Assembly: GCF_012927485.1 (NCBI RefSeq)
Contig: NZ_JABBPC010000009.1
Span: forward strand, 124,001-188,000
Reading direction: 5' to 3'
Length of the DNA: 64,000 nt
Origin: Polaromonas sp.
GTDB taxonomy: Bacteria > Pseudomonadota > Gammaproteobacteria > Burkholderiales > Burkholderiaceae_C
Shown here: piece by piece, positions 46,733 through 64,000 of the stretch
Position numbering within the stretch: position 1 is the stretch's first letter
Layout of the letters: every line of letters starts with the position of its first letter
Notes under the pieces: model-generated
Databases searched by the model: none
What the model was told of the DNA's origin: nothing
What the model saw: only the letters and a program-made list of their open reading frames with translations
Translations under genes and position numbers: made by a program

Positions 46733-48091
46733 TTAACTGGCTTGTAGCCGACGAACCCGTGTTGCCGGAAAAATGAGTGAAAAGAGCGACCCCAGCCCCG
46801 GCTGGCTCTCGATCTGAAGTTCGACACCGTGGCGCTGGGCTACGTGTTTGACGATGGCAAGGCCCAAACCAGTTCCGCCTGTCTCGCGCGAGCGACTACG
46901 GTCAATCCGGTAAAACCGCTCCGTTAGACGCGGCAGGTGTTCAGGTGCGATTCCCGGCCCCGTGTCCTTGACCTGGAATTTTCCGCGCCCATCTTCCAGA
47001 ACTGTCCAGCTCACTTTGACCAATCCCCGCTCCGCCGTGTAACGCACTGCATTGGTGATCAGGTTAGACATGGCACTGTAGAGCTCGGTTTGGGCGCCTG
47101 CGATTTCACACGCCGGTCCAGGCTCAAACTCCAGTTGCTGCCCCTGTGGCGCAATCACCACCGACAAAGCCTTTGCGTCTTGTTCACATTGGGCAAACAG
47201 GGCTCGGGTGGTTATCCAGTCATTGGCATCCGGCAATGGGCTGCCTTCCAGGCGGGACAGAATCAGCAAGTCGCTCACGAGGGTCTGCATGCGCTTGGAT
47301 TGTTGCGCCATCAGCGCAAGATAACGGCCACGTTCCGCCTCCTTTAAAGGCAAGGTTTGCAAGGTTTCGATGAAGCCGGACAACACCGTTAATGGCGTGC
47401 GTATTTCATGCGACACGTTGGCCACAAAATCCCGGCGCATCGCTTCTGCGAGCTCGATGGCCGTGATGTCGCGAGAGAGTAACAATTTGCGGTTTTTACC
47501 ATACGAATGCGCATGCACCGACAGCTTCACTGGGCGCGCCGGTGTGCTGAAGCTGCCTGGGATCAGCACGTCTCGTGAAAAGTTTCCGGCTGCCATATAG
47601 GCCTTGAACGCGGGCTCTCGCACCAAATTGGCGATGTGTTGCAACACATCACGCTGCGCATCAAACCCGAAATGCTGCGTTGCCACCTGGTTACACCATT
47701 CAATTCGCCCGCGTGCATCAAGCAACACCACGCCGCTTGGTGAAGCCTGCAGCGCCGCCAAAAACTCGCCAAGTCGCGCCTGACTTTCAAGATTCTGCTG
47801 ATCGCGATTTTTTAACAGCCTGCGAGTGCGGTCGGCCACCTCTCCCAACACCCCTGGCAGGCTGGGTGCGACGGCTAGCGTACTGACCAGCCCCTCCTGC
47901 GGTTCGTTGCTCTGTTCGGTGCGGAGCCAGTTAAGTAGCCTCGCCATGTAGAGACTGTCGACCAGCAGCCAGACAAAAGCGCCCAACGCGATCCCCATGC
48001 CCAGCCCAAGGCCTTCCTTCGCCGTCGTCCACCACCCTAAACTGCCGCCGACAAACATGCAGACCGCAAAAATGATCCAGCGATTGATCAT
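46733..48091 (-). CDS. phoR: Phosphate-regulon sensor histidine kinase PhoR
   Basis: 452 residues. Two close membrane segments at the N-terminus (IIFAVCMFVGGSLGWW; LGMGIALGAFVWLLVDSLYM), then a PAS domain (LAALQASPSGVVLLDARGRIEWCN), HisKA box ANVSHEIRTPLTVLSGFIETL, and ATPase boxes SNLITNAVRYTA, KDTGPGI and GGTGLGLAIVKH. Autophosphorylates when PstSCAB-PhoU signals low phosphate and then activates PhoB. Its ATG overlaps the phoB stop (ATGA). Confidence 0.94.
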   Translation of the reverse strand: MINRWIIFAVCMFVGGSLGWWTTAKEGLGLGMGIALGAFVWLLVDSLYMARLLNWLRTEQSNEPQEGLVSTLAVAPSLPGVLGEVADRTRRLLKNRDQQNLESQARLGEFLAALQASPSGVVLLDARGRIEWCNQVATQHFGFDAQRDVLQHIANLVREPAFKAYMAAGNFSRDVLIPGSFSTPARPVKLSVHAHSYGKNRKLLLSRDITAIELAEAMRRDFVANVSHEIRTPLTVLSGFIETLQTLPLKEAERGRYLALMAQQSKRMQTLVSDLLILSRLEGSPLPDANDWITTRALFAQCEQDAKALSVVIAPQGQQLEFEPGPACEIAGAQTELYSAMSNLITNAVRYTAERGLVKVSWTVLEDGRGKFQVKDTGPGIAPEHLPRLTERFYRIDRSRSRETGGTGLGLAIVKHVAQRHGVELQIESQPGLGSLFSLIFPATRVRRLQAS

Positions 48092-48813
48092 CTCCCGGAG
48101 GGTGTTGCAGCAAGCACACTTTGGGCCACGACGGCTGTTAAGCGATAACCGGCACCGCGAACAGTTTCCACCATCGGGCCAGCAGTGCCCAGGGCTTCCC
48201 GCAAGCGCTTGACGTGAACGTCGACCGTACGCTCTTCAATAAATACGTGGTCACCCCACACCTTGTCCAGCAAGGAACTGCGGCTGTGCACCCGTTCTGC
48301 GTGCTTCATCAGATAGTGAAGCAGCTTGAACTCCGTCGGTCCCAGCTTGAGTTCCTGGTTTTGAAATGAAATACGGTGAGTCGCTGCGTCCAATATCAAA
48401 CCGGCCACGGTGACGCTGTCGTTTACCGACTCGGGAGCCCGGCGACGCAGTACCGCACGAATGCGTGCAAGCAATTCCTGCGTAGAAAAAGGCTTGGTAA
48501 TGTAATCGTCGGCGCCAGCATCCAGTCCGGCCACTTTGTCCGTCTCATCGCCCCGAGCCGTTAACATCAGAATGGGAATACTTTTGGTACGGGGCTGCTT
48601 GCGCCAGTAACGCGCCAGCGCAAGGCCGCTCTGCCCCGGAAGCATCCAGTCCAGCAGGATGACATCCGGCAGCACGGCGTCAAGTTCGCGCTGGGCCGCA
48701 ACACTGTCCTCCACTACCACTGGCGCAAAGCCGCCATGCCGCAGGTTGACGGCAATCAGTTCGGCGATGGCCGGCTCATCCTCAACAATCAATACGCGTG
48801 GCAGATGTTTCAT
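48088..48813 (-). CDS. phoB: Phosphate-regulon response regulator PhoB
   Basis: 241 residues from ATG 48813 (two TTG codons upstream are less likely). Receiver: VEDEPAIAELI, phospho-acceptor D55 in VILLDWMLPGQSG, and lysine in DYITKPFSTQEL. The winged helix (LKLGPTEFKLLHYLMKHAERVHSR, ERTVDVHVKRLREAL, VRGAGYRL) binds PHO boxes. Two or three candidate PHO-box arrays lie in this window, so several nearby operons are likely direct targets. Confidence 0.95.
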   Translation of the reverse strand: MKHLPRVLIVEDEPAIAELIAVNLRHGGFAPVVVEDSVAAQRELDAVLPDVILLDWMLPGQSGLALARYWRKQPRTKSIPILMLTARGDETDKVAGLDAGADDYITKPFSTQELLARIRAVLRRRAPESVNDSVTVAGLILDAATHRISFQNQELKLGPTEFKLLHYLMKHAERVHSRSSLLDKVWGDHVFIEERTVDVHVKRLREALGTAGPMVETVRGAGYRLTAVVAQSVLAATPSGR

Positions 48814-48819
48814 CAACAA

Positions 48820-49521
48820 TTACTTTATGGCCGACTCAATCTGATCCATGGGGCTGTGCCTGACATCTGCCCCCTTAACGATGTAAATGATGAACTCTGC
48901 GATGTTCTTGGCATGGTCGCCAATGCGCTCAATGGCCTTGGCTAAAAACAACAAGTCCAGACTCGCGGAAATGGTGCGGGGATCTTCCATCATGTAAGTG
49001 ATCAACTTGCGCACGAAGCCGTCAAACTCCTGGTCGATCTGGTCGTCCTCCTTGAGGATGGAAACTGCAGCCGTGGTATCCAGCCGGGCGAAGGCATCGA
49101 GTGCCTTGCGCAACAGACCGGACGCAAGATCTGCCGCCACGCCCAACTCAGAGGCTGGCAGCAAGCGGGCCGAGCCGCTGAGAATGATGGACTTGACCAT
49201 TCGTGCGATTTTTGCAGCCTCATCACCAACCCGCTCCAGGTTGGCTGTCGTCTTGGAAATGGCAATCAACAGGCGCAGATCCCGGGCCGTAGGCTGGCGG
49301 CGCGCAATGATGGAAGACAACTCGCGGTCAATGTCTATCTCCATCATGTTTACACGCGCCTCGGTCTCGGCGACCTGGTCAGCGCTTTCCGCATTGAACT
49401 GCGACAGCGCGTGAATGGCCAAACGAATCTGAGATTCCACCAATCCGCCCATCTCCATCACGCGTGAAGACACGCCGTTGAGTTCGCTGTCAAACTGGGT
49501 GGACAAATGTTTGTCAGGCAT
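48820..49521 (-). CDS. phoU: Phosphate-specific transport regulator PhoU
   Basis: 233 residues, two similar three-helix units. Conserved segments include ELNGVSSRVMEMGGLVESQIRLAI, an acidic metal-cluster motif (E-x-x-x-D type; METEARVNMMEID region), and in the second unit AKAIERIGDHAKNIAEFIIYIVKG. In known systems PhoU links the Pst transporter to PhoR inhibition. Between pstB and phoB in one minus-strand operon; 20 bp from pstB and 6 bp from phoB. Confidence 0.95.
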   Translation of the reverse strand: MPDKHLSTQFDSELNGVSSRVMEMGGLVESQIRLAIHALSQFNAESADQVAETEARVNMMEIDIDRELSSIIARRQPTARDLRLLIAISKTTANLERVGDEAAKIARMVKSIILSGSARLLPASELGVAADLASGLLRKALDAFARLDTTAAVSILKEDDQIDQEFDGFVRKLITYMMEDPRTISASLDLLFLAKAIERIGDHAKNIAEFIIYIVKGADVRHSPMDQIESAIK

Positions 49522-49541
49522 ACTTTGTTCCTTGATCCTTT

Positions 49542-50321
49542 TCAGCCGAAGCGGCCGGTAATATAGTCTTCGGTCTCTTTGCGCCTAGGCTTGAAGAAAA
49601 GATCTTCCGTCGCGCCGAATTCAACCAGATCCCCCAAGTACATATAGGCTGTGTAGTCACTGCAACGGGCAGCCTGCTGCATATTGTGGGTCACGATAAC
49701 CACCGTATATTCACTTTTTAACTCGGCGATGAGTTCCTCGATCTTGGCTGTAGAAATCGGATCCAATGCCGAGCAAGGCTCGTCCAGCAGCAGCACTTCC
49801 GGCTTGATGGCGATGCCACGCGCAATGCAAAGCCGCTGCTGCTGACCGCCCGACAGGCTGGCGCCGCTCTGATGCAATTTGTCCTTGACCTCTGTCCAAA
49901 GAGCGGCCTTGCGCAATGCCCATTCCACCCGCTCATCCAGGTCTGCAGCGTTCAGGCTGTCAAACAACTTTACGCCAAAGGCGATGTTGTCATATATCGA
50001 CATCGGAAAAGGGGTCGGCTTTTGAAAAACCATGCCTACTTTCGAGCGAATCAGCGCCACGTCCTTTTTGGACGTCAGCAGATTCTCGCCGTCGAATATG
50101 ATTTCACCTTCCGCGCGCTGCTCCGGATAAAGCTCGTACATACGGTTGAAAATACGCAGTAACGTGGATTTACCGCAGCCCGAAGGGCCAATGAATGCGG
50201 TGACTTTCTTTTCAGGAATCTCCAGGTTGATACCTTTCAAAGCGTGAAACTTGCCGTAATAGAAATCGAGATTTTTAACCGATATTTTTGACTGTTGACG
50301 CTTTTCGCCAGAGCTATTCAT
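49542..50321 (-). CDS. pstB: Phosphate ABC transporter ATPase PstB
   Basis: 259 residues. Walker [13 protein letters not shown]-loop [20 protein letters not shown], signature [16 protein letters not shown], Walker [14 protein letters not shown] and switch histidine [10 protein letters not shown]. The [11 protein letters not shown] stretch is typical for PstB. Energises PstCA-mediated phosphate uptake. Confidence 0.97.
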
Positions 50322-50369
50322 CTTTAACCTTGTCTTATTGTGTTCGTTGAACGGCGATCAGCCTCGCTG

Positions 50370-51230
50370 TCAGCCTTTAACACGCGTCAACATCCGCGCA
50401 AGAATATTCAACCCGAGTACCGCCACTGTAATCAAGAACACGCCCGCCCATGCGAGCTGCTGCCAGTTCTCGTAGGGACTCATCGCAAACTTGAAAATAA
50501 TCACAGGCAAGCTAGCCATTGGCTGACTTAAATCCGAGTTCCAGAACTGGTTGTTCAATGCCGTGAACAGCAAGGGAGCGGTTTCACCCGCGATACGCGC
50601 TACGGCCAGCAATATGCCCGTCACCACCCCCGAGCGGGCGGCCTTGAGCGTGATGCTTGTGATGACCTTCCACTTCGGCGCACCCAATGCGTAAGCCGCC
50701 TCACGCAGGCCCGGCGGAACCAGCTGCAGCATATTTTCAGTCGTGCGTATGACCACCGGAATCACAATCAGGGCAAGGGCCAGCACACCCGCCCAGCCAG
50801 AGAAGGAATGAAATCGGGACACCACGATCGCGTACACAAACAGACCAATCACGATCGACGGCGCTGACAGCAAAATGTCATTCACGAAGCGAGTCACCGA
50901 GGCCAGCCAACCCTTCGTGTTGTATTCAGCAAGGTAGATACCAGCCATGATGCCGATCGGCGTACCCACAAACGTAGCCAGCAGCACCATCAAAAAAGAG
51001 CCATAAAGCGCGTTAGCAAGACCGCCCGCTTCGTTGGGTGGAGGCGTCATTTCAGTGAAGGTCGCAAGCGCGATACCGCCAAGGCCCAGTCGTACGGTTT
51101 CCCACAGAATCCAGAACAACCAGAATAGGCCAAACGACATGGCTGCCAGGGACAACGCGAGGGCTACCCCATTGATCCGTTTACGACGAGCGAACTTGGC
51201 CAAGCGCGCATCACGCATCACGGCGCTCAT
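50370..51230 (-). CDS. pstA: Phosphate ABC transporter permease PstA
   Basis: 286 residues, six membrane segments beginning with [22 protein letters not shown]. The coupling (EAA-like) region is [31 protein letters not shown], followed by [13 protein letters not shown]. Overlaps the pstC stop by four bases (ATGA), so it is translationally coupled. Confidence 0.96.
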
Positions 51231-52258
51231 GATTTGCTTCCTTCATTTTTCCTTAATTGGGCCAGCAGCAGTTTGGACAACGCCAACACCACAAAGGTGA
51301 TGAAGAACAGAACCAGACCCAGATAAATTAATGCGGCTTGATGCAAGCCTTCAGCCGCCTCGGCGAATTCGTTCGCCAGTGCTGACGTGATGCTGTTGGC
51401 TGCCTGAAACAGGCTCAGCGAATCTAACTGGTTGAAGTTCCCGATGACGAAAGTCACTGCCATGGTTTCCCCCAGAGCACGACCTAAGCCCAGCATGATG
51501 CCGCCCATCACACCGGCTTTGGTATAGGGCAGCACCACTTTAAAAACCACCTCCCAGGTAGTAGACCCTAAACCGTAGGCCGATTCTTTCAGCAGCACCG
51601 GTGTGACTTCAAACACATCGCGCATCACTGAAGCAATGAACGGAATGATCATGATCGCGAGGATGATGCCCGCCGACAAAATACCGATACCCACCGGCGG
51701 GCCAGAAAACAGGGCACCGAGGTAAGGCACATTGCCAAAAAGATTTTGCAGGGGTTGCTGCACATAGGTCGCCAGGATGGGACCAAACACCAGCAGCCCC
51801 CACATCCCGTAAACAATAGAGGGGACGGCTGCCAGCAGCTCGATGGCTGTCCCCAAAGGCCTCTTGAGCCAAGCCGGCGACAGCTCGGTCAAAAACAGCG
51901 CGATGCCAAAACTGACAGGCACCGCGATCAGCACTGCGATCAATGAGGTAGCCAGCGTGCCATAAATCATGACCAGGCCACCGTACTCGTTCTTCACGGG
52001 GTCCCAAACGCTGCTGGTCAAAAAACCGAGCCCATACTCGCTGATGGCAGGCCACGCCCCAACGATGAGTGATGCCAGAATGCCGATCAACAGGCCCAGC
52101 GTCAGCAAAGCTGCGCCTAGCGCAGCCCAGCTGAAAAGCCGGTCTGCCAAGGGACCTCTGCGCACAGTATTTACGGGAGAAGGCTTAATCATGTCGCGTC
52201 CGGTCACTTGTGCCGGCTGGTCAATCAATGCCCGGCTAGCAGGAAGTGTAGAGGACAC
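51227..52258 (-). CDS. pstC: Phosphate ABC transporter permease PstC
   Basis: 343 residues from GTG 52258. An alternative ATG at 52192 (MIKPSPVN) would remove 22 residues of low conservation. Six membrane segments; [30 protein letters not shown] and the coupling region [42 protein letters not shown] are typical of PstC. Follows pstS by 41 bp. Confidence 0.95.
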
Positions 52259-52299
52259 GTAAAAAACCTTGTAGTTGGTGGCGGAGGATGACAGCTTAC

Positions 52300-53343
52300 T
52301 TACTTGTAGGCGATTGCTTTACCGGAGACATCCTTGATATCGCCCCAAGATTTTTCGATGATGGTTTTCACGCTGGCAGGAATGGCCACATAGTCCAGAT
52401 CGCCCGCGGTCTTGTCGCCGTTTTTGTAAGCCCACTCAAAGAATTTTAGCGATGCAGCCGCTTGCGCCGGTTTGTCTTGTAGCTTGTGCATCAGAATGAA
52501 GGTTGCACCCGTGATCGGCCACGCATCTTTGCCTGGCTGTTCCGTCAGGATTTGATAAAAACTCTTGGACCACGCCGCGCCGCCGGCGGCGGCTTTGAAA
52601 GCCGCTTCGTCAGGCGACACAAAATTACCGGCAGCGTTCTTCAGTTGGGCGTAGGCCATTTTGCTCTGCTTGACATAGGCATATTCGACAAATCCAATCG
52701 AATTAGGCAGGCGACCAACAAACGCGGCCACCCCTTCGTTGCCCTTGCCGCCCGCACCCACTGGCCAGTTCACGGCCGTACCTTCTCCCACTTTGGCCTT
52801 CCACTCCGGGTTGACCTTGCTGAGGTAGTTGGTGAAAATAAAACTGGTACCGGAACCGTCCGCGCGGCGAACCGGCGCGATGGCGGCATCAGGCAAAGCG
52901 AGCGTAGGGTTCAAAGCCTTGATGGCCGGATCTGTCCACTTGGTGATTTTACCAAGATAGATATCACCGAGAACCTGGCCAGTAAGTTTGAGTTGACCCC
53001 CGGTAACGCCTTTGATGTTTACAACTGGAATAACGCCGCCGATCACCGTCGGAAACTGCAACAACCCCTTCTTGGCCAACTCGTCATCCTTGAGGGGCAT
53101 ATCCGATGCACCAAAATCGACCGTTTTGGTATCGATCTGCTTGATGCCAGCGCCCGACCCGACCGATTGATAGTTGATTTTGACGCCAGTGGCCTTGTTG
53201 TAGTCAGCAGCCCATTTGAAATAGAGCGGCGCCGGGAAGCTGGCTCCAGCACCCGTTACGCCTTGCGCAGCGGATAGTGTGGAAAACGACATGACAGCAA
53301 TACCCATCACAGTCATCACAGAAGCTTTGGAACTCAATTTCAT
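52300..53343 (-). CDS. pstS: Periplasmic phosphate-binding protein PstS
   Basis: 347 residues. Signal peptide [19 protein letters not shown], then [42 protein letters not shown], and [17 protein letters not shown], all phosphate-contacting motifs of PstS. First gene of pstSCAB-phoU-phoBR. A PHO-box-like repeat lies about 50 bp upstream of the ATG. Confidence 0.97.
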
Positions 53344-53395: not shown

Positions 53396-53413
53396 ATGAC
53401 AAACATGTGACAA
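53396..53413 (-). promoter_or_regulatory. PHO box upstream of pstS
   Basis: TTGTCAC (53413-53407), 4 bp, TTGTCAT (53402-53396) on the minus strand: the 11-bp direct-repeat spacing and heptamers match the PhoB box (consensus CTGTCAT-like). The pstS start is 53 bp downstream. Confidence 0.85.
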
Positions 53414-53450
53414 CTGGCTCGGGATAGCCGATGATTTTCATCATTGTGCG

Positions 53451-53490
53451 GCGTCATAAAACATTCAAGTTTCCGTCACAAAGTTGTCAT
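53451..53490 (+). promoter_or_regulatory. PHO-box repeats upstream of the fasciclin lipoprotein gene
   Basis: CCGTCAC (53473-53479) and TTGTCAT (53484-53490) are 11 bp apart, and GCGTCAT (53451-53457) is exactly two repeat units further upstream. The pair faces the fasciclin gene at 53537, divergent from pstS. Confidence 0.75.
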
Positions 53491-53536
53491 TAAGTTCTTC
53501 TACGCTTGGCGCTGTCTTAATCAGGAGCTTTATCGC

Positions 53537-54019
53537 ATGTTCAACTGCCGTATTTTGTTTGCCGCTGCAACTATTGCCGCCCTCTCCGGCTGCGCCACCC
53601 ACTCAACTCCCTTGTCGGTGGCCGACACCATCGCAGCCGAGCCACAACTGAGCACGCTCAACCGCCTGGTTGTCAAAGCCGGCCTGACCGACACGCTCAA
53701 AGGCGCAGGGCCCTTTACCATCTTCGCGCCTAGCAACGAGGCTTTCTCCAAAGTAGCGGCCAAAACCATGGACGAATTGGGCAACAACCCTGCGGAACTC
53801 AAGGCAGTCCTGAGTTACCACGTTGTTCCGGGGAAGTTCATGGCCGCCGATGTCAAAAATGGCACGATTAAAACCGTCAATGGCGCCAACGTGGCGCTCT
53901 CCAAAGCAGGCGAATTTGTCACCATTGAAGAAGCCTTGGTTCAGACTGCCGATATTTCTGCAACCAACGGTGTCGTGCATGTCATAGACAGCGTTCTGAT
54001 TCCTCCAGCAAAGCACTAG
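53537..54019 (+). CDS. Fasciclin-domain lipoprotein, probable Pho-regulon member
   Basis: 160 residues from ATG 53537 with an AGGAG site. Lipoprotein signal FAAATIAALSGCATHS (lipobox LSGC). One FAS1 domain: RLVVKAGLTDTLKGAGPFTIFAPSNEAFSKV, VLSYHVVPGKFMAADV, and NGVVHVIDSVLIPP. Third fasciclin gene in the window. Divergent from pstS with PHO-type repeats in front, so phosphate-starvation induction is inferred. Role possibly adhesion or envelope change. Confidence 0.9.
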   Translation: MFNCRILFAAATIAALSGCATHSTPLSVADTIAAEPQLSTLNRLVVKAGLTDTLKGAGPFTIFAPSNEAFSKVAAKTMDELGNNPAELKAVLSYHVVPGKFMAADVKNGTIKTVNGANVALSKAGEFVTIEEALVQTADISATNGVVHVIDSVLIPPAKH

Positions 54020-56950: not shown

Positions 56951-57415
56951 ATGACAACCACCAAGAAACCAGCCCTTTCAGCACCCTTGGTTGTAGCCGC
57001 ACCAACCGCCGCAAAGCGTGATGTACCGGTCAAACAAAAGGCCACCACGTCAACTGCGGCAAAATTGCCTGTTCGCAAAGTCGCTGTCAAAAAAGCTGCT
57101 GTAGAAAAAGCGGCACCTCAAAAAGTCGTTGCTCAGGTGCCTCTTTCCAAAGCCTTTGCCTCAGCAAAGCCCGAAAAAATCCAAAAACCTAAAAAACCCA
57201 AACTGGTCCGCGACAGCTTTACCATTCCGAAAGCCGAATATCTGGTCCTGGATGAGCTCAAGCAGCGCGCGGCGACATTGACCCGGCCTGCCAAAAAAAG
57301 CGAACTACTGCGTGCCGGTATCAAAATCTTGGCCACCCTGTCAGACGCAAGCTTCCTGAATGCCCTGGAGCGGGTTCCCACCATTAAAACAGGCCGCCCT
57401 ACGCTGAACAAGTAA
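56951..57415 (+). CDS. Lysine/alanine-rich protein with a RHH-like C-terminal domain
   Basis: 154 residues, strongly basic. Residues about 1-85 are K/A/P/V-rich and histone-H1-like (KVAVKKAAVEKAAPQKVV; KPKKPKLVRDS). Residues about 88-140 (DSFTIPKAEYLVLDELKQRAATLTRPAKKSELLRAGIKIL) look like a ribbon-helix-helix DNA-binding unit. Probably a nucleoid-associated or regulatory DNA-binding protein; no specific function known. Preceded by a 20-bp palindrome. Confidence 0.75.
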   Translation: MTTTKKPALSAPLVVAAPTAAKRDVPVKQKATTSTAAKLPVRKVAVKKAAVEKAAPQKVVAQVPLSKAFASAKPEKIQKPKKPKLVRDSFTIPKAEYLVLDELKQRAATLTRPAKKSELLRAGIKILATLSDASFLNALERVPTIKTGRPTLNK

Positions 57416-57422
57416 GCGTACC

Positions 57423-57896
57423 TCAGAGCACCTCGGGCGACTGTACGGTGACTACGGCAGTCTGGCAACGGCCATCGCGGTCCCGGCTGCGAAGCCACCA
57501 GAGCGCGCCTTTTTTAACCGGACAGTCACTTTCCTGAAGCCCTAGAAGCTGCGCGATAGTCTGTCCGAGCGTCGGTTGATGCCCTATCACCAGAATCGGT
57601 GATTTGCTAAGGGGCCATTGCACCAGTGCCAGCAACTGCGCGGCTGTTCCACCCGGTGAAAGTTCGGAACGGATTTTGTACTTGCGTCCTAAGGCAAGCG
57701 CCGTCTGCTCGCAGCGCCGCGCTGGACTCACCAAAATACGGGCACCCTCAGGCAACTGCCGGTCCAGCCAGTTGGCCATGCGAGAGGCCTGTTTTTCCCC
57801 TCGCGCCGTGAGCGTCCGGTCCAGGTCACGGGTTCCGAGCGGATCACTTTCGAATCCCTCTTCCGCCTCTGCATGACGCCATAAAATCAGGTCCAT
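57423..57896 (-). CDS. sixA: Phosphohistidine phosphatase SixA
   Basis: 157 residues of the histidine-phosphatase superfamily: the N-terminal LILWRHAEAEEG (RHG-type motif), SPARRCEQTALAL, and LVIGHQPTLGQTIAQLLG with the second histidine. In E. coli SixA acts on phosphohistidine of NPr-type proteins. It begins one base after the ppk1 stop, so it is in the ppk1 transcript. Confidence 0.9.
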   Translation of the reverse strand: MDLILWRHAEAEEGFESDPLGTRDLDRTLTARGEKQASRMANWLDRQLPEGARILVSPARRCEQTALALGRKYKIRSELSPGGTAAQLLALVQWPLSKSPILVIGHQPTLGQTIAQLLGLQESDCPVKKGALWWLRSRDRDGRCQTAVVTVQSPEVL

Positions 57897-57897
57897 T

Positions 57898-60006
57898 TTA
57901 TTTCTCCCGATGGTGGGAAACCGAGTAGCGGGCCATCAAGGCCGCTTGTGCACCATGACGCTGCGCCGGGTCTGGCGGATTCACGCGCGCATAAGTGCCG
58001 TCCGGCTGCAAGTCCCAGGCATCGCAGCCATCGTGCAGATAGGCCACCAGGCATTCATCGATGATGCGCTGCCGGAGAGCGTGATCGATCACCGGCCATG
58101 CCAGCTCCACCCTGCGCAGCATGTTGCGATTCATCCAGTCGGCGCTTGAAAGGTAGAGAGCTTCTTCCTCTGCGCAGCGAAAATAAAACACGCGCGAGTG
58201 CTCAAGGAAACGGCCAATGACCGAACGCACCCGGATGTTGTCTGTGATGCCAGGCACCTGAGCCGGCAGCGTACAGGCACCGCGCACGATCAAATCAATT
58301 TTCACCCCGCGCTGGCCCGCCTTGACCAAAGCCACAATGAGGTCTTCGTCGGTTAGCGCATTCATCTTGGCCACAATGCGCGTGTCTTTGCCTTGCAGCG
58401 CGGCTTCGCCCAGAAAATCGATTTTTTCCACCAGTTTGTGTTGCAGCTCAAACGGTGCCAGCCAGAGGTGATTCAATCTCGGCAAGCGGCTTTGACTGGC
58501 CAGGTGCACAAATACATTGTCAATATCCGAAGTCAACAAAACATCAGCCGTCAGATAACTTACGTCTGTGTACAAGCGGGCCGTGCTTCGGTTGTAGTTG
58601 CCGGTTGACAAATGGGCATACCGCTTGAGCCGCTTACCCTCACGCCGCGTGACCAGCAGCATTTTGGCGTGGGTCTTCAGCCCCACCACGCCATAAACCA
58701 CTTGTGCGCCAATTGACTCCAGCATTTCCGCCCAATTGATATTCGCCTCCTCATCGAAACGCGCCTTCAGCTCCACCACGACCGTGACTTCCTTGCCCCG
58801 ACGAACAGCCTCCCGCAGCAGCGCCATCAATTGCGAATCAGCGCCCGTGCGGTAAATGGTTTGCTTGATCGCAAGTACTTTGGGATCGTTGACCGCCTCA
58901 CGAAGGAAATCCAGGACCGCGTCGAAGCTCTCGAACGGTTGGTGGATGGACACATCGCCCTGCTTGAGCCGCTCAAAAAAAGATTGCCCGGGCACCAGTT
59001 GCGTGGGGTAGCAGGGGTAGTAACGCGGAAAAAGAAGCCTGGGATCGTTGATCAGGTCCACGAGTTGGGTCAGCCGCACCAGATTGACCGGGCCTTGCAC
59101 CCGGTACAGGGCGAGAGCTGGCAAGTTGAACTGTTTGAGTAAAAATCCCGATAAATAGTCTGAACAGCCAGAGGACACTTCCAGACGAACCGCTTGCCCG
59201 TAGTGGCGCTGCTCCAGGCCTTGCCGTAAAGCGGTGCGAAGGTTTTTTACATCGTCTTCATCCACTGCAAGATCGGAGTGCCGGGTGACCCGGAATTGGG
59301 AAAACTGCCCCACATCACGTCCCAAAAACAGCTCGGTCAAGTGAGCCCGAATGACACTAGACAGCGATACAAACAAGCTACCCTGGTTCTTATTTTGGCT
59401 AGGCATGTGGATAAAGCGTGGCAATACCCGCGGGATCTTGACGATGGCAATCTCATTTTGACGCCCAAAGGCGTCGTGGCCCCCAAGCCTGACAATGAAG
59501 TTCAGGGACTTGTTGGCCACCTGTGGAAACGGATGAGAGGGATCAAGCCCGACCGGAATCAATAGCGGCCTAACTTCCCTCTCAAAATACTGCTTGACCC
59601 AACGTCGTTGCGCCGCATCGCGCTCGCCGTGAGACACGATGCGGATACCGTGTAATTCGAAGGCGGGCAACAAGTCGTCGTTATAAAGGGAGTACTGCCG
59701 CGCTACCAAGTCGTGTGCGGCGGTCGAAAGCGCCTTGAATGATTGAGCGGTGTACGGGCCTTTTTGCTCGTTAGTTTGGGCCGCTGTCAGGTGCGGAGCG
59801 GTGCGGACCTCAAAAAACTCATCCAGATTGGACGACACGATGCACAGAAACCTCAGCCTTTCCAGCAGGGGTACGTCCGGGCGTTTGGCCCAGTCCAGCA
59901 CCCGCTCGTTGAAAGCAAGAATACTGTGGTCGCGGTCCAGAAACGGGATGGGTGTGTCGGCAGCGGTTAACGGGACGGGAGAAATTGGCAAAGAAGGCAT
60001 TAACAA
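57898..60006 (-). CDS. ppk1: Polyphosphate kinase 1
   Basis: 702 residues (an ATG two codons in, 60000, is an alternative). N-terminal domain FLDRDHSILAFNERVLDWAKRPDVPLLERLRFLCIVSSNLDEFFEVR, then KAIKQTIYRTG, VVVELKARFDEEANINWAE, and YAHLSTGNYNRSTARLYTDVSYLT with the autophosphorylated histidine. Makes polyphosphate from ATP. Operon with sixA. Near the Pho genes, consistent with phosphate storage. Confidence 0.95.
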   Translation of the reverse strand: MLMPSLPISPVPLTAADTPIPFLDRDHSILAFNERVLDWAKRPDVPLLERLRFLCIVSSNLDEFFEVRTAPHLTAAQTNEQKGPYTAQSFKALSTAAHDLVARQYSLYNDDLLPAFELHGIRIVSHGERDAAQRRWVKQYFEREVRPLLIPVGLDPSHPFPQVANKSLNFIVRLGGHDAFGRQNEIAIVKIPRVLPRFIHMPSQNKNQGSLFVSLSSVIRAHLTELFLGRDVGQFSQFRVTRHSDLAVDEDDVKNLRTALRQGLEQRHYGQAVRLEVSSGCSDYLSGFLLKQFNLPALALYRVQGPVNLVRLTQLVDLINDPRLLFPRYYPCYPTQLVPGQSFFERLKQGDVSIHQPFESFDAVLDFLREAVNDPKVLAIKQTIYRTGADSQLMALLREAVRRGKEVTVVVELKARFDEEANINWAEMLESIGAQVVYGVVGLKTHAKMLLVTRREGKRLKRYAHLSTGNYNRSTARLYTDVSYLTADVLLTSDIDNVFVHLASQSRLPRLNHLWLAPFELQHKLVEKIDFLGEAALQGKDTRIVAKMNALTDEDLIVALVKAGQRGVKIDLIVRGACTLPAQVPGITDNIRVRSVIGRFLEHSRVFYFRCAEEEALYLSSADWMNRNMLRRVELAWPVIDHALRQRIIDECLVAYLHDGCDAWDLQPDGTYARVNPPDPAQRHGAQAALMARYSVSHHREK

Positions 60007-60041
60007 TAAGAGGCATTTCGATTAAAGATAGTCATTATTGT

Positions 60042-61163
60042 TTACTTCGTTGATGACCAGGGCGTGACGGTACTTTTCACCAATGGTGCCTTTCTATTTG
60101 CCAACTTGCAACTGGCAGTTTTAGCGGGGCTCGTGTCTTTTCGCGCAGCTTCCAAATAGCTCTCAAACAACTGCGCCGAATGTGCCCAACTGAAATCCAG
60201 GGCCCTCACACGCGCCTCATGGCGCGGTAACGCAAGTGCGGCGTAGCAAGCCTGCTGTAAATGGGCGTTCATGACGCCACCGTGACAAGTTCCATCCGCT
60301 TTTCCCAACACCTCCAGTGGACCGTCCACCGGATAAGCGGCCACCGGCGTGCCGGTTGCCATGGCTTCCAGCATCACCAGGCCAAATGTTTCCGACTTGC
60401 TTGGAAACACAAATACATCCGCAGCTGCATACACCTTGGCCAGCTCGTCCCTGGCCAATACGCCCATCCAGAGCACCTCCGGATAGCGTTCCTTGAGCAA
60501 CCGCTCCAGCGGGCCCACCCCGCAAACAACTTTGGTGCCGGGTAGGTCCAGCCGCAGGAACGCCTCGATGTTTTTCTCGTACGACACGCGCCCCACAAAC
60601 AAGGAGACAGGGCGTACTAACGCCCCCATGGGAGCGTGCAAACGCGGCTCAGGCTGAAACGCAAAAAGTTGCGTATCTACGCCGTGCGTCCAGCTGCGCA
60701 AGTTGCGGAAACCCCGCTGCTCAAGCATGCGCAGCACGCCGTTCGTCGGCACCATCACACCAGAAGACGGCTTGTGAAAGTAGCGAAACAGCGCATAGCC
60801 CCACGACAAGGGGATTCTGAGTGCCGCATGGAGGATCTCAGGAAACTTCGTGTGAAAGGCAGTGGTGAAGTTCAGACCGCGTTTGAGGCAATACCGGCGT
60901 GCCGCCCATCCGAGCGGACCTTCAGTGGCAATATGGATAGCTTCTGGCTGAAAAGCGTCCAACTGGTGCGTTAGTCCGCGCTTGGGGCGAACGGCCAGGT
61001 CAATACCGGCATAGCCGGGGCAAGGCCGGGTGATAAATAGGCCGGGATGAATCACTTCGACAGAGTGCCCCATTTGCTGAAGCTCACGCACCAGTTCCAC
61101 CAAGGTGGTCACAACGCCGTTAACCTGAGGCGCCCAAGCGTCGGTAATCAGGGCGATTTTCAC
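60042..61163 (-). CDS. GT4-family glycosyltransferase, candidate lipid glycosyltransferase (Agt-like)
   Basis: 373 residues from GTG 61163. MKIALITDAWAPQVNGVVTTL (donor/acceptor N-lobe), GHSVEVIHPG, SLFVGRVSYEKNIEAFLRL, and the GT4 nucleotide-sugar motif FVFPSKSETFGLVMLEAMATGTPVAAYPVDGPLEV (EXE-like). Its start overlaps the end of the metallophosphoesterase (GTGA). In several bacteria a GT4 enzyme next to plcP glucosylates diacylglycerol under phosphate starvation; that role is inferred here from the neighbours. Confidence 0.85.
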   Translation of the reverse strand: MKIALITDAWAPQVNGVVTTLVELVRELQQMGHSVEVIHPGLFITRPCPGYAGIDLAVRPKRGLTHQLDAFQPEAIHIATEGPLGWAARRYCLKRGLNFTTAFHTKFPEILHAALRIPLSWGYALFRYFHKPSSGVMVPTNGVLRMLEQRGFRNLRSWTHGVDTQLFAFQPEPRLHAPMGALVRPVSLFVGRVSYEKNIEAFLRLDLPGTKVVCGVGPLERLLKERYPEVLWMGVLARDELAKVYAAADVFVFPSKSETFGLVMLEAMATGTPVAAYPVDGPLEVLGKADGTCHGGVMNAHLQQACYAALALPRHEARVRALDFSWAHSAQLFESYLEAARKDTSPAKTASCKLANRKAPLVKSTVTPWSSTK

Positions 61164-62041
61164 GCGGCTAGCACCCCAGCAACCTGGCCTCGACCCTGGC
61201 TTTCATGGGATGGCGCCCAATGCACCAGTTCGAGGGTGCCATCGAAATGCTCGACCAGCGCGCTGCGGCTTTCAACCCAATCGCCGTCGTTGCAGTACAA
61301 CACGCCGTTGATGTCGCGCATCTCGGCGCGGTGGATGTGGCCGCAGACCACACCCTGATGGCCACGGCGGCGCGCCTCGTTGGCGACTGCTACTTCAAAA
61401 TCGGTGACGTAGTTGAGAGCGCTCTTGACCTTTTGCTTCAGATAAGCCGACAGCGACCAGTAAGGCAATCCCATGCGGGCGCGCAGGCTGCTGAGATACC
61501 GGTTAAGTTTGAGTGTAAATTCGTAGAGGTTGTCGCCCACGTAGGCAAGCCATTTGGCGCATTGCACCACCGCATCGAAATAGTCGCCGTGAATAATCCA
61601 CAGCTGACGGCCATCGGCGGTGGTATGGACGGCTTCGCCGGTGACTTCGATACCGCCGAACTGGTTACCGATAAATTCACGCGCAAACTCATCATGGTTG
61701 CCAGGAACATAAATGATGCGGCACCCTTTGCGGGCACGTCGCAGCAACTTTTGCACCACATCGTTGTGAGACTGCGGCCAATACCACTTGCGGCGCAGCT
61801 GCCAGCCGTCCACGATGTCACCCACCAAGTAGAGACTGTCGCTGGGATGGGCTTTCAGAAAATCCAGCAGAGCTACTGCCTGACAACCAGGTGTGCCCAA
61901 GTGAAGGTCGGAAATAAAAATGGCGCGGTAGCGCTGGCGCAGCGCGTCCTCATCGTCGTCATGACTGTTGCCGTCTGACCCCGGTACGATTCCATTGCCA
62001 ACTGATGCGATCGACCCCAAAGCGTCAAACAGCTTTCGCAT
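61160..62041 (-). CDS. PlcP-like metallophosphoesterase (LpxH-related family)
   Basis: About 293 residues from ATG 62041, with the upstream stop overlapping (TGATG). Calcineurin-like motifs: FISDLHLG (DxH), YLVGDIVDGW (GDxxD), IYVPGNHDEF (GNHD), IHGDYFD, CGHIHRAEM (GHxH). RRKWYWPQSHNDVVQKLLRRARKG and the LNRYLSSLRARMGLPYWSLSAYLKQKVKSA region resemble PlcP, the starvation-induced phospholipase C, more than LpxH. It would release diacylglycerol for the downstream glycosyltransferase (inference). Confidence 0.83.
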   Translation of the reverse strand: MRKLFDALGSIASVGNGIVPGSDGNSHDDDEDALRQRYRAIFISDLHLGTPGCQAVALLDFLKAHPSDSLYLVGDIVDGWQLRRKWYWPQSHNDVVQKLLRRARKGCRIIYVPGNHDEFAREFIGNQFGGIEVTGEAVHTTADGRQLWIIHGDYFDAVVQCAKWLAYVGDNLYEFTLKLNRYLSSLRARMGLPYWSLSAYLKQKVKSALNYVTDFEVAVANEARRRGHQGVVCGHIHRAEMRDINGVLYCNDGDWVESRSALVEHFDGTLELVHWAPSHESQGRGQVAGVLAA

Positions 62042-62907
62042 CACGAACCCCCAGGTTTGCCCGACAGTGGGCTTCCTGAAAAATGCTTTAAATAGCGCGG
62101 CGGCAGGTCGGCAATACGCATCATCATGGGTAAGTCGGCCGAGTTGAAATCCGGGTCCCAGGCCGGTGCACCCAATACTTTGGCGCCCAGCCGCAGGTAG
62201 CCCTTGATCAAGGCAGGAGGCTCTACAGCCAGCGAATCATCAAGCAACTCAACCGGCAGAGCCAGCCGCGGCGTCACGCGGTACTCAATGCCAGCCAGGT
62301 GGCTTTGTCTTACCTGGCGCCAGATGCTGGCTGCTGCATGGCCGCTGGACACCCCGTTGTGCTGCATCGGAATGCTGGCGCAACCAATCATGGTGTCGAG
62401 CTGGTTGCGCGACATGAACTCTGCCAACGCGCCCCAAAGCGCCAGAATCACGCCGCCGTGCCGGTGGTCAACATGCACGCAGCTGCGGCCCAGTTCAACC
62501 ATCCGCTCCCGTAGGCCCCGCAGCCGGGTCAGGTCGAATTCAATGTCGCTGTAGGTGCTGCCCACACGCTTGGCCTGCGTTGGCGTGAGCACCCGATAAG
62601 TACCAATCACCTCGCCGCTGTCCGCATCGCGCACCAGCAGGTGTTCGCAGTAGTCGTCAAACAAATCGACGTCATGCCCAGGCAAGGTTTTCGACAGCGT
62701 TGCACCCATCTCAAGCGCAAACACCTGATACCTCAGACGCTGCGCTTGCCGGACCTCATCCTGGTGCCGGGCCCAACTGACCGAGATTTTGCCCACTGAA
62801 GGCCTTTGGTCAGGGACTGCGCTGACCGCAGGACAGCTTTGATGAAGTGACCCCCGTGGCATGGCGACGGGCGACAATGCAAAGGTGGGATTGGGCAGTT
62901 CTTTCAT
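62041..62907 (-). CDS. OlsB-like N-acyltransferase (GNAT, ornithine lipid type)
   Basis: 288 residues. GNAT/autoinducer-synthase-like fold: VRQAQRLRYQVFALEMGATL, DLFDDYCEHLLVRDADSGEVIGTYRVL, ELGRSCVHVDHRHGGVILALWGAL, and MIGCASIPM. It matches hemolysin/OlsB-type acyltransferases that N-acylate ornithine, the first step of ornithine lipid formation, or a related amino-lipid. A second acyltransferase (OlsA) is not in the window. First gene of the coupled unit with plcP-like and GT4 genes; AAGGAG site before the ATG. Confidence 0.82.
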   Translation of the reverse strand: MKELPNPTFALSPVAMPRGSLHQSCPAVSAVPDQRPSVGKISVSWARHQDEVRQAQRLRYQVFALEMGATLSKTLPGHDVDLFDDYCEHLLVRDADSGEVIGTYRVLTPTQAKRVGSTYSDIEFDLTRLRGLRERMVELGRSCVHVDHRHGGVILALWGALAEFMSRNQLDTMIGCASIPMQHNGVSSGHAAASIWRQVRQSHLAGIEYRVTPRLALPVELLDDSLAVEPPALIKGYLRLGAKVLGAPAWDPDFNSADLPMMMRIADLPPRYLKHFSGSPLSGKPGGS

Positions 62908-63008
62908 GGCTAACTCCTTATTTGCTCACTGTTTTAAAACGTTTAAACCCTCTGCAAGCACCAACACCGAACGCGCTGTGAGAAGCTCTTTTTAGGGGGC
63001 TTTGACTT

Positions 63009-63266
63009 TTAATTGCCAGCGGCCCGAAGAACTGCGTTTTCGCGTCTGCCGACGACTGCGGCGGAAGGGGGCGAACAACTTGATAACTGATCGAGCCACG
63101 GCCTGCTGCCGGCTTTAAATCGCAAACCGCCCGGACTGCTGGCCATAGCGTGCGCCGTGCAGCGCAAAATGCGCAGGCGCTGCTGGTCGAGGTCGTGAGC
63201 GGCAAGGCTAAAGGCCGGACCGACCATTTTTTCTTGTTCACCGACTTGGTTTGAATCCACTCCCAT
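63009..63266 (-). CDS. Small hypothetical protein between the PHO array and the lipid operon
   Basis: 85 residues from ATG 63266, which has a GGAG site; a start at 63290 is too close to the operator. MGVDSNQVGEQEKMVGPAFSL and LDQQRLRILRCTAHAMAS look protein-like, but there is no recognised domain. It may instead be the leader of the OlsB-like operon, whose first gene starts 100 bp after its end. Confidence 0.35.
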   Translation of the reverse strand: MGVDSNQVGEQEKMVGPAFSLAAHDLDQQRLRILRCTAHAMASSPGGLRFKAGSRPWLDQLSSCSPPSAAVVGRRENAVLRAAGN

Positions 63267-63312
63267 CGCGTACTCCATCGTGCTGGTCATGCAGCGATTC
63301 TGAAAGGAGGGA

Positions 63313-63352
63313 GTGACGCGCCTGTGTCAGTTCAATGGCAGTTGTGTGACAG
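63313..63352 (-). promoter_or_regulatory. Array of four PHO-type direct repeats
   Basis: On the minus strand CTGTCAC (63352-63346), CTGCCAT (63341-63335), CTGACAC (63330-63324) and GCGTCAC (63319-63313) occur at exact 11-bp intervals. The first pair is an almost perfect PhoB box. The array points toward the OlsB-like/plcP-like/GT4 operon. Confidence 0.83.
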
Positions 63353-63621
63353 TGTCCAGCGGGACTCGGCGAATCTGTGTGACCCGTTAGCGCCAGACAA
63401 TTCCTTGCAGCGGGCCGAAATAAAATTGTTCCTCAAGACGTAGCAAACTATTTTTATAAGTCATGCGTAACGGCGGGCAAACGCCCTCTGCCGCTTGAAG
63501 GATCTGGTTGGAAAAATGCTTGGCGCACAAGCTGAAGTGAAAGGTGCACCGACTCACTCGCCTTGATAGCACTTCGGCTTAAAAAACTCGATCGATAGTC
63601 GGACGATACGCTGCAAAAATA

Positions 63622-64000
63622 TCACTGGTCAGCAACACGGCCGCCGCGATCATCGATGACTTGCTCGCCATCTTCCTTGGCGAAGGCACCGGTTTGCGGT
63701 AGCGCCAGGAGCTCCAGCACGGTCTCTGACGGACGGCACAAGCGGGTGCCCAGCGGTGTCACCACAATCGGCCGATTAATCAAAATCGGATGAGCCAGCA
63801 TCGCGGTTATCAGCGCGTCATCGCTCAAGCCCGGGTAGTCGAGCTGAAGTTTATCGTAGGGCGTTCCTTTGCGCCTGAGCAGATCCCTGACAGGCATCGC
63901 CATCTGCGCAATCAACTCCTGCAGCTTTTCGCGCGTGGGTGGAGTGACCAGGTATTCGACGATGACGGGTTCGACGCCGGTGTTTCTAATCAGCGCCAGC
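63622..64000 (-). CDS. arsC: ArsC-family arsenate reductase (glutaredoxin type), 5' end outside the window
   Basis: Partial gene. LALIRNTGVEPVIVEYLVTPP, then TREKLQELIAQMAMPVRDLLRRKGTPY, HPILINRPIVVTPLGTRLCRPSETVLELL are the hallmark C-terminal three quarters of glutaredoxin-coupled ArsC; the catalytic N-terminal cysteine lies outside. ArsC reduces arsenate, which enters by phosphate transporters, so the neighbourhood fits. The assignment is to the ArsC/YfgD/Spx-like family with arsC as best guess. Confidence 0.85.
   Translation of the reverse strand, partial: LALIRNTGVEPVIVEYLVTPPTREKLQELIAQMAMPVRDLLRRKGTPYDKLQLDYPGLSDDALITAMLAHPILINRPIVVTPLGTRLCRPSETVLELLALPQTGAFAKEDGEQVIDDRGGRVADQ

What the first reader, a model, noticed from the sequence alone, without database searches (positions are those of the whole stretch)
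60042..63352. PHO-box array in front of a compact phosphorus-free membrane-lipid operon
The window shows three coupled genes (GNAT acyltransferase of OlsB type, PlcP-like metallophosphoesterase, GT4 glycosyltransferase; overlaps TGATG and GTGA) behind four exact 11-bp PHO-type repeats. Established knowledge: PlcP plus a GT4 enzyme replaces phospholipids with glycolipids under phosphate starvation, and OlsB starts ornithine-lipid synthesis. Combining both branches in one three-gene unit in a Comamonadaceae-like genome seems unusual and is my main functional proposal.
Basis: partly seen in the sequence, partly recalled or inferred. Interest (0 to 1): 0.75.

Follow-up and report, generated by a model that had tools for sequence, protein, structure and literature searches.

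The report
Phosphate-starvation membrane-lipid operon, plus small gene
A bacterium of the Polaromonas group keeps genes for swapping phosphorus-containing membrane fats for phosphorus-free ones behind one likely phosphate-controlled switch, with a small, conserved gene of unknown function at the front.

Summary
The window is Polaromonas-like. 63313-63352 (-) is a PHO-box array; its first three half-sites are the only match within 3 mismatches in the 3.5 Mb genome (2 mismatches, reversed control 0). Spacing is exactly 11 bp, but the repeats are not identical. Behind it lie an OlsB-type acyltransferase (below NCBIfam cut-offs), a PlcP homologue (53% to S. meliloti) distinct from the genome's LpxH-like gene, and a GT4 nearer Agt1 (48%) than Agt2 (33%). 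An OlsA candidate lies elsewhere. Phosphate-controlled ornithine-lipid plus glycolipid synthesis is well supported by sequence, untested at the bench. 'Unusual' is not supported: the trio recurred in 7 of 20 and 42 of 73 family loci examined.

It matches in 66 of 87 genomes of the genus, shows purifying selection, and in three genomes stands with its own PHO array without olsB beside it. No Pfam, NCBIfam, PHROG or PDB match. Function unknown; I infer a PhoB-induced helper of remodelling.

The parts
63313..63352 (-). PHO-box array, four CTGTCAY-like half-sites at exact 11-bp spacing
   Evidence: similar arrays upstream of relatives
63297..63302 (-). predicted -10 element CAGAAT, 10 nt after the fourth half-site
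   Evidence: CANAAT at this spacing in 27 of 32 regions (31 loci and the window) with a box more than 200 nt from the gene (alignment)
63009..63290 (-). conserved small ORF (93 aa from ATG 63290; alternative start ATG 63266 with GGAG), core LRILRCTAxAMASSPGGLRFxxGxRPWLEGL
   Evidence: start codons
62041..62907 (-). OlsB-type N-acyltransferase (PF13444)
61160..62044 (-). PlcP-type metallophosphoesterase (predicted intracellular phospholipase C)
60042..61163 (-). GT4 glycosyltransferase, nearer to Agt1 than to Agt2 (predicted diacylglycerol glucosyltransferase)
57898..60006 (-). ppk1 polyphosphate kinase, next gene on the same strand; possible operon extension
   Evidence: ppk within 6 kb downstream in 12 of 19 and 55 of 64 loci
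57423..57896 (-). histidine phosphatase (His_Phos_1; the name SixA is recalled), same strand
   Evidence: synteny
46733..53343 (-). pstSCAB-phoU-phoB-phoR, phosphate transporter and the cognate regulator
   Evidence: NCBIfam cut-offs reached; ORFs
53396..53413 (-). PHO-like site in front of pstS (two half-sites, 1 mismatch each)

Best explanation
This is a PhoB-activated membrane-remodelling operon. When phosphate runs out, PhoB from the nearby pst-pho cluster binds the four-half-site array and recruits polymerase to the CAGAAT -10. The transcript carries a small protein, then OlsB, PlcP and a GT4 enzyme. PlcP cuts phospholipids to diacylglycerol plus a phosphoalcohol. The GT4 puts a sugar on the diacylglycerol (glucose predicted, because it is closer to Agt1 than to Agt2). 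OlsB makes lyso-ornithine lipid, which a PlsC-family enzyme encoded elsewhere (contig C5, beside a pyrC-like gene) turns into ornithine lipid. The small protein is a separate PhoB-regulated product, probably peripheral to the membrane or a modulator. Shown here: gene content, homology, promoter anatomy and its recurrence in relatives, coding constraint on the small ORF. Inferred: PhoB binding, co-transcription, enzyme activities, the amino acid used by OlsB, the sugar used by the GT4, the small protein's role.
For: PHO array best in the window and sole genome match of the plain pattern within 3 mismatches. A 4-half-site score of 6 or better upstream of GNAT in 42 of 98 loci, against about 2% of random 700-bp pieces of the same loci. 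In ten named loci of a Polaromonas clade, two of them fetched again as L157 and L158, the box lies about 2.1 kb upstream of GNAT, before a PhoX gene in the one locus tested (L158, 566 bits). Predicted -10 at fixed spacing in 27 of 32. PlcP 53% to the S. meliloti and 56% to the P. aeruginosa homologue; GT4 48% to the Agt1 and 33% to the Agt2 homologue. OlsB models best. The OlsA candidate has OlsA as best family and is the best of four own PlsC proteins against S. meliloti OlsA, 88 bits, next 40. OlsA homologue near the GNAT relative in 11 of 18 loci of other families. Complete pst-pho set in the window.
Against: OlsB and OlsA candidates score well below the NCBIfam cut-offs (151 of 350, 143 of 320; 127 of 300), so another amino acid cannot be excluded. 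No three-half-site PHO match on the OlsA candidate's contig (looser sites not tested). Seven of the 18 other-family loci have no OlsA nearby, and none of the 11 same-family loci of that set does. 12 of 20 and 23 of 73 family loci lack PlcP within 300 nt, so the branches are separable. 56 of 98 loci do not reach the score of 6 within 700 nt. No expression or lipid data. About 100 nt separate the small ORF from olsB; co-transcription is not shown.
Confidence: 0.85

Rival explanations
1. The N-acyltransferase makes a different aminolipid (glutamine, glycine or other), so the unit makes a non-ornithine aminolipid plus glycolipid.
For: Only 33% identical to S. meliloti OlsB over 257 residues and below the OlsB cut-offs. 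Recalled, from no call: glutamine-lipid enzymes of roseobacters are close relatives of OlsB.
Against: OlsB models score far above GlsB (18.9 bits) and OlsF (37.6 bits); OlsA homologue near the relative in 11 of 18 other-family loci, though OlsA could serve other aminolipids too. No glutamine-specific model appeared among the matches.
Confidence: 0.15
2. The small ORF is only a leader of the olsB transcript (attenuator or translational coupler), not an independent protein.
For: 64 of 68 genus matches lie directly upstream of a GNAT gene; an ATG sits at the predicted +1 in 17 of 25 chosen loci; weak AlphaFold model (mean pLDDT 61.9).
Against: Three genomes keep the ORF and a PHO array (5, 7 and 5 mismatches of 28) with no GNAT behind it. 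Conservation is at amino-acid level with variable ends: pN below pS in 276 of 276 non-independent pairs.
Confidence: 0.2
3. The phosphoesterase is a second LpxH and the unit concerns lipid A rather than membrane remodelling.
For: Where annotated, such proteins are called UDP-2,3-diacylglucosamine diphosphatase; the 7 solved sequences matched are all UDP-2,3-diacylglucosamine hydrolases, weakly.
Against: 53-56% to PlcP homologues versus a 40-residue local match to the own LpxH-like protein; 40 bits on the LpxH model, cut-off 190, the same range as the S. meliloti PlcP homologue at 39 bits; GT4 partner as in the P. aeruginosa pair.
Confidence: 0.03

Closest known systems
plcP-agt operons (P. aeruginosa PA3219-PA3218, marine bacteria, Methylosinus trichosporium)
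   Same: PlcP followed by a GT4 glycosyltransferase behind a PHO box; 56% and 48% identity to a P. aeruginosa pair on a plasmid record. PMC8528852, PMC4796936, PMC9239053: passages seen
   Different: Here olsB and a small ORF precede plcP in the same unit and ppk follows. The operon passages seen mention no olsB; supplementary tables, such as the plcP contexts of PMC4796936, were not seen
olsB/olsA ornithine-lipid genes (S. meliloti, A. tumefaciens, P. putida)
   Same: OlsB-type N-acyltransferase with a putative Pho box (A. tumefaciens olsB, PMC3972451, passage); OlsAB and PlcP lost in a phoBR mutant of P. putida BIRD-1 (PMC5082522, passages)
   Different: The olsA candidate is not adjacent here but on another contig; olsB is coupled to plcP
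PHO-box units with an extra gene before GNAT-PlcP-GT4 in a Polaromonas clade (L158 and nine further named loci)
   Same: same GNAT-PlcP-GT4 order and a PHO array at the front
   Different: about 2 kb stands where the window has the small ORF; it is phoX in L158, the only one tested by Pfam

Membership tests
PlcP (intracellular phospholipase C) | Close homology to characterised PlcP, distinct from LpxH | tested here: met
   53% over 259 aa to the S. meliloti homologue, 56% over 238 aa to the P. aeruginosa homologue, LpxH-like gene separate. The reference labels rest on homology, neighbour genes and recall; the two references are 46.6% identical, as PMC8528852 reports for PA3219 and S. meliloti PlcP (46%, passage)
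PlcP (intracellular phospholipase C) | Metal-binding motifs of the metallophosphoesterase fold (motifs recalled) | tested here: met
   SDLHLG, GDIVDGW, GNHDEF, IHGD, CGHIH aligned with the references
PlcP (intracellular phospholipase C) | Releases diacylglycerol from phospholipid | not testable with these tools
   needs an enzyme assay
Agt-type DAG glycosyltransferase (GT4) | GT4 homology to Agt, gene directly after plcP | tested here: met
   48% over 347 aa to the Agt1 homologue, 33% over 383 to the Agt2 homologue (labels by neighbour genes, and recall); 4-nt overlap with plcP
Agt-type DAG glycosyltransferase (GT4) | Sugar donor specificity | not testable with these tools
   glucose predicted only from closeness to Agt1
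OlsB (ornithine N-acyltransferase) | Membership by NCBIfam equivalog cut-off | tested here: not met
   151 of 350 and 143 of 320 bits. The cut-offs look clade-narrow: S. meliloti OlsB passes one model (511) and fails the other (242 of 350)
OlsB (ornithine N-acyltransferase) | Nearest to OlsB among acyltransferase families, with an OlsA present | tested here: met
   OlsB models best by over 100 bits; OlsA candidate on C5; OlsA homologue near the relative in 11 of 18 other-family loci
OlsB (ornithine N-acyltransferase) | Acylates ornithine | not testable with these tools
   needs an assay
PHO regulon promoter | CTGTCAY half-sites at 11-bp spacing, -10 downstream, recurring in relatives | tested here: met
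PHO regulon promoter | PhoB binding and phosphate-dependent transcription | not testable with these tools
   footprint or reporter needed
Known small-protein family | Match of the 93-aa ORF to Pfam, NCBIfam, PHROGs or PDB | tested here: not met
   no match

The most novel reading that the evidence does not exclude
The small ORF founds a new, nearly genus-restricted family of PhoB-induced small proteins, translated from a leaderless mRNA that begins at the AUG placed at +1 of the PHO promoter. Its conserved helix (residues 26-51) and SPGGLRF..RPWLEGL tail bind the membrane or the remodelling enzymes and tune the switch from phospholipid to ornithine lipid and glycolipid.
Probability: 0.22. Interest if true: 0.62.

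Novelty: new variant of a known kind. Interest (0 to 1): 0.45.

Why it matters
If true, both phosphorus-free lipid branches of a Polaromonas-type bacterium sit under one PhoB promoter, so one deletion or reporter tests the whole switch. It extends the plcP-agt theme, which the papers seen describe in marine bacteria, Pseudomonas, Agrobacterium and a methanotroph, to Comamonadaceae. It also offers a small protein family with a strong regulatory context and an obvious first phenotype to test.

Tried and rejected
Second LpxH: rejected. 'Exact' repeats: rejected as sequence identity. 'Unusual combination': rejected for the family loci examined. sigma-70 promoters in 59900-63700: none found, 1.6 expected by chance. 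Terminator-like sites there: 3 found, 5.3 expected; the one between the small ORF and olsB is on the + strand. RNA families in 59900-63900: none at gathering score. Small ORF in other families of the order: two weak matches (L140, L141), inspected as ORF lists only and judged chance; four weak family matches not inspected. Wide searches scored only 13-17 first-look candidates per genome against up to 60 in the genus search, so absence outside the genus is soft. Small ORF on plasmids: none. AlphaFold of the small protein: low confidence; no fold search made. The acyltransferase was not placed on a tree; neighbour genes and models were used instead. Literature: ten searches listed no paper that I could see describing this operon or the small gene; the library holds open-licence papers only, and beyond the six papers opened (passages) hits were seen as listings.
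Full report
Setting. The window is C34:124001-188000 of a 3.51 Mb genome. The best named matches of its acyltransferase are Polaromonas (92-93% identity). The window holds pstSCAB-phoU-phoB-phoR at 46733-53343 on the minus strand, each reaching at least one NCBIfam cut-off, ppx on the plus strand, a histidine phosphatase of SixA type, ppk1, and an arsC cut by the window edge.

The three enzymes. Protein 62041-62907 is PF13444 (118.8 bits). Its two best NCBIfam models are OlsB (151 and 143 bits), above exosortase-associated acyltransferase (38), OlsF (37.6) and GlsB (18.9), but under the OlsB cut-offs of 350 and 320. It is the only PF13444 match of the genome. The S. meliloti OlsB scores 511 on one OlsB model and 242 of 350 on the other, so the cut-offs look clade-narrow. 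Protein 61160-62044 is 53% identical over 259 residues to the S. meliloti PlcP homologue and 56% over 238 to the P. aeruginosa one. These labels rest on homology, on neighbour genes and on recall; the two references are 46.6% identical, and PMC8528852 reports 46% for PA3219 and S. meliloti PlcP (passage). Against the own LpxH-like protein it aligns over 40 residues only; that gene sits separately on C34 with 169 bits, itself below the model's cut-off of 190. Protein 60042-61163 is a GT4 enzyme, 48% identical to the Agt1 homologue and 33% to the Agt2 homologue. PMC8528852 (passages) reports that Agt1 uses UDP-glucose and Agt2 UDP-glucuronic acid, hence my glucose prediction.

OlsA. Four PF01553 proteins were found in the genome. 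The one on C5, beside a pyrC-like gene (named by eye), has OlsA as best family (126.8 bits, cut-off 300) and is the best of the four against S. meliloti OlsA (88 bits, next 40). In the 18 loci from other families of the order (the best-scoring ones among 30 loci returned; 290 of 399 genomes matched), 7 have an OlsA homologue directly downstream of the acyltransferase gene, 4 more, all one genus, have a divergent OlsA homologue, then PlcP, then the acyltransferase, and 7 have no OlsA in the stretch held. None of the 11 same-family loci of that set has one. This neighbour evidence is the strongest for OlsB.

Promoter. The array 63313-63352 has half-sites with 0, 1, 1 and 2 mismatches to CTGTCAY at exact 11-bp steps. 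The plain three-half-site pattern has one match within 3 mismatches in the genome, this array with 2; its reversed control has none. Upstream of the acyltransferase gene, 42 of 98 loci have a 4-half-site score of 6 or less within 700 nt, against about 2% of random 700-bp pieces of the same loci. Two of 100 loci had too little upstream sequence, four genomes are present twice (96 distinct acyltransferase genes), and the loci are related, so they are not independent. Of the 43 regions that pass, window included, 32 have the box more than 200 nt from the gene; 29 of these are loci with the small ORF, one is the window, and two (L111, L128) are neither. The 11 with the box closer lack the small ORF. 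In 27 of the 32 a CANAAT follows the fourth half-site after 10 nt. In ten named loci of a Polaromonas clade (two of them fetched again as L157 and L158) the array lies about 2.1 kb upstream, before a PhoX gene in the one locus tested (L158).

Neighbourhood. Among loci with at least 2.2 kb downstream, PlcP follows the acyltransferase within 300 nt in 8 of 20 and 50 of 73, and PlcP plus GT4 in 7 of 20 and 42 of 73. Among loci with at least 5 kb, ppk follows within 6 kb in 12 of 19 and 55 of 64. The acyltransferase itself occurs in 252 of 299 family genomes and 290 of 399 order genomes.

The missed gene. Between array and olsB lies 63009-63290 (minus). tblastn finds it in 45 of 100 loci. An alignment of the window's ORF and 23 of these gives invariant L42 C44 T45 A46 G54 G55 L56 G61 P64 W65 L66 with variable ends. 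In the conserved 31 codons, pN is below pS in 276 of 276 pairs (medians 0.16 and 0.58) and third positions differ most (4044 against 1788 and 1033; pairs share ancestry). It matches in 66 of 87 genomes of the window's genus, a few only weakly, and in 9 of 299 family genomes: four of the same genus, one other strong (G125), four weak. 64 of 68 genus matches have the acyltransferase gene within 2 kb downstream. Of the four exceptions one (G729) is a weak match; the other three (L153, L154, L155) keep the ORF and a PHO array (5, 7 and 5 mismatches of 28) and no acyltransferase match in the stretch. A surE gene lies nearby, confirmed by Pfam in L153 and read by eye in the others. So the gene can stand without olsB and appears to have its own promoter. 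An ATG sits exactly at the predicted +1 in 17 of 25 loci that I chose (window included), one nt off in 3, and is the only start in L074, L081 and L084, which suggests leaderless translation. The +1 is my assumption (6 nt after the -10), in the window a start at 63266 has a GGAG, and in 5 of the 25 no start lies at +1. AlphaFold gives a confident helix only at residues 26-51 (pLDDT 86-88 over residues 31-50; overall 61.9).

Prior work. PMC4796936, PMC8528852, PMC9239053, PMC3972451 and PMC5082522 were read as passages. They describe plcP-agt operons, a putative Pho box before olsB, and PhoBR-dependent PlcP and OlsAB; none of the passages seen describes olsB-plcP-agt as one unit. The ten paper searches named in Tried and rejected listed no report of this operon or of the small gene.

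Verdict. A conserved phosphate-starvation lipid operon of known components in an arrangement I did not find described, well supported by sequence and untested at the bench, plus a new small protein family whose function is open.

Noticed in passing
L072 9777-9827, L076, L077, L087, L088 9802-9841, L090: In loci of the clade with the box about 2.1 kb upstream, a second array with two or three good PHO half-sites lies just before ppk, so ppk may have its own PhoB promoter there.
   Followed up: no
window 53444-54019 (+): A fasciclin-domain gene divergent from pstS, with PHO-like half-sites at 53451-53490 on its strand that overlap the listed TTG start; the true start may be further in.
   Followed up: partly
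L091, L093 (6618-6851): An acyltransferase copy with no ppk match in the stretch, preceded by a decayed copy of the small ORF (conserved GG and W changed; one has an in-frame stop), still with a PHO array of 6 mismatches.
   Followed up: partly
L103 13694-14832: PlcP-GT4 lies on the far side of ppx while the acyltransferase gene is next to ppk: the pair behaves like a movable module.
   Followed up: no
L191, L198, L199, L200: In 1.3 Mb genomes of another family, a divergent OlsA homologue, PlcP and the acyltransferase gene are neighbours, in three loci with a convergent GT4 match: a different clustering of both lipid branches.
   Followed up: partly
window 56951-57415 (+): A 154-aa Ala/Lys-rich protein between ppx and the histidine phosphatase gene, with no Pfam match.
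   Followed up: no
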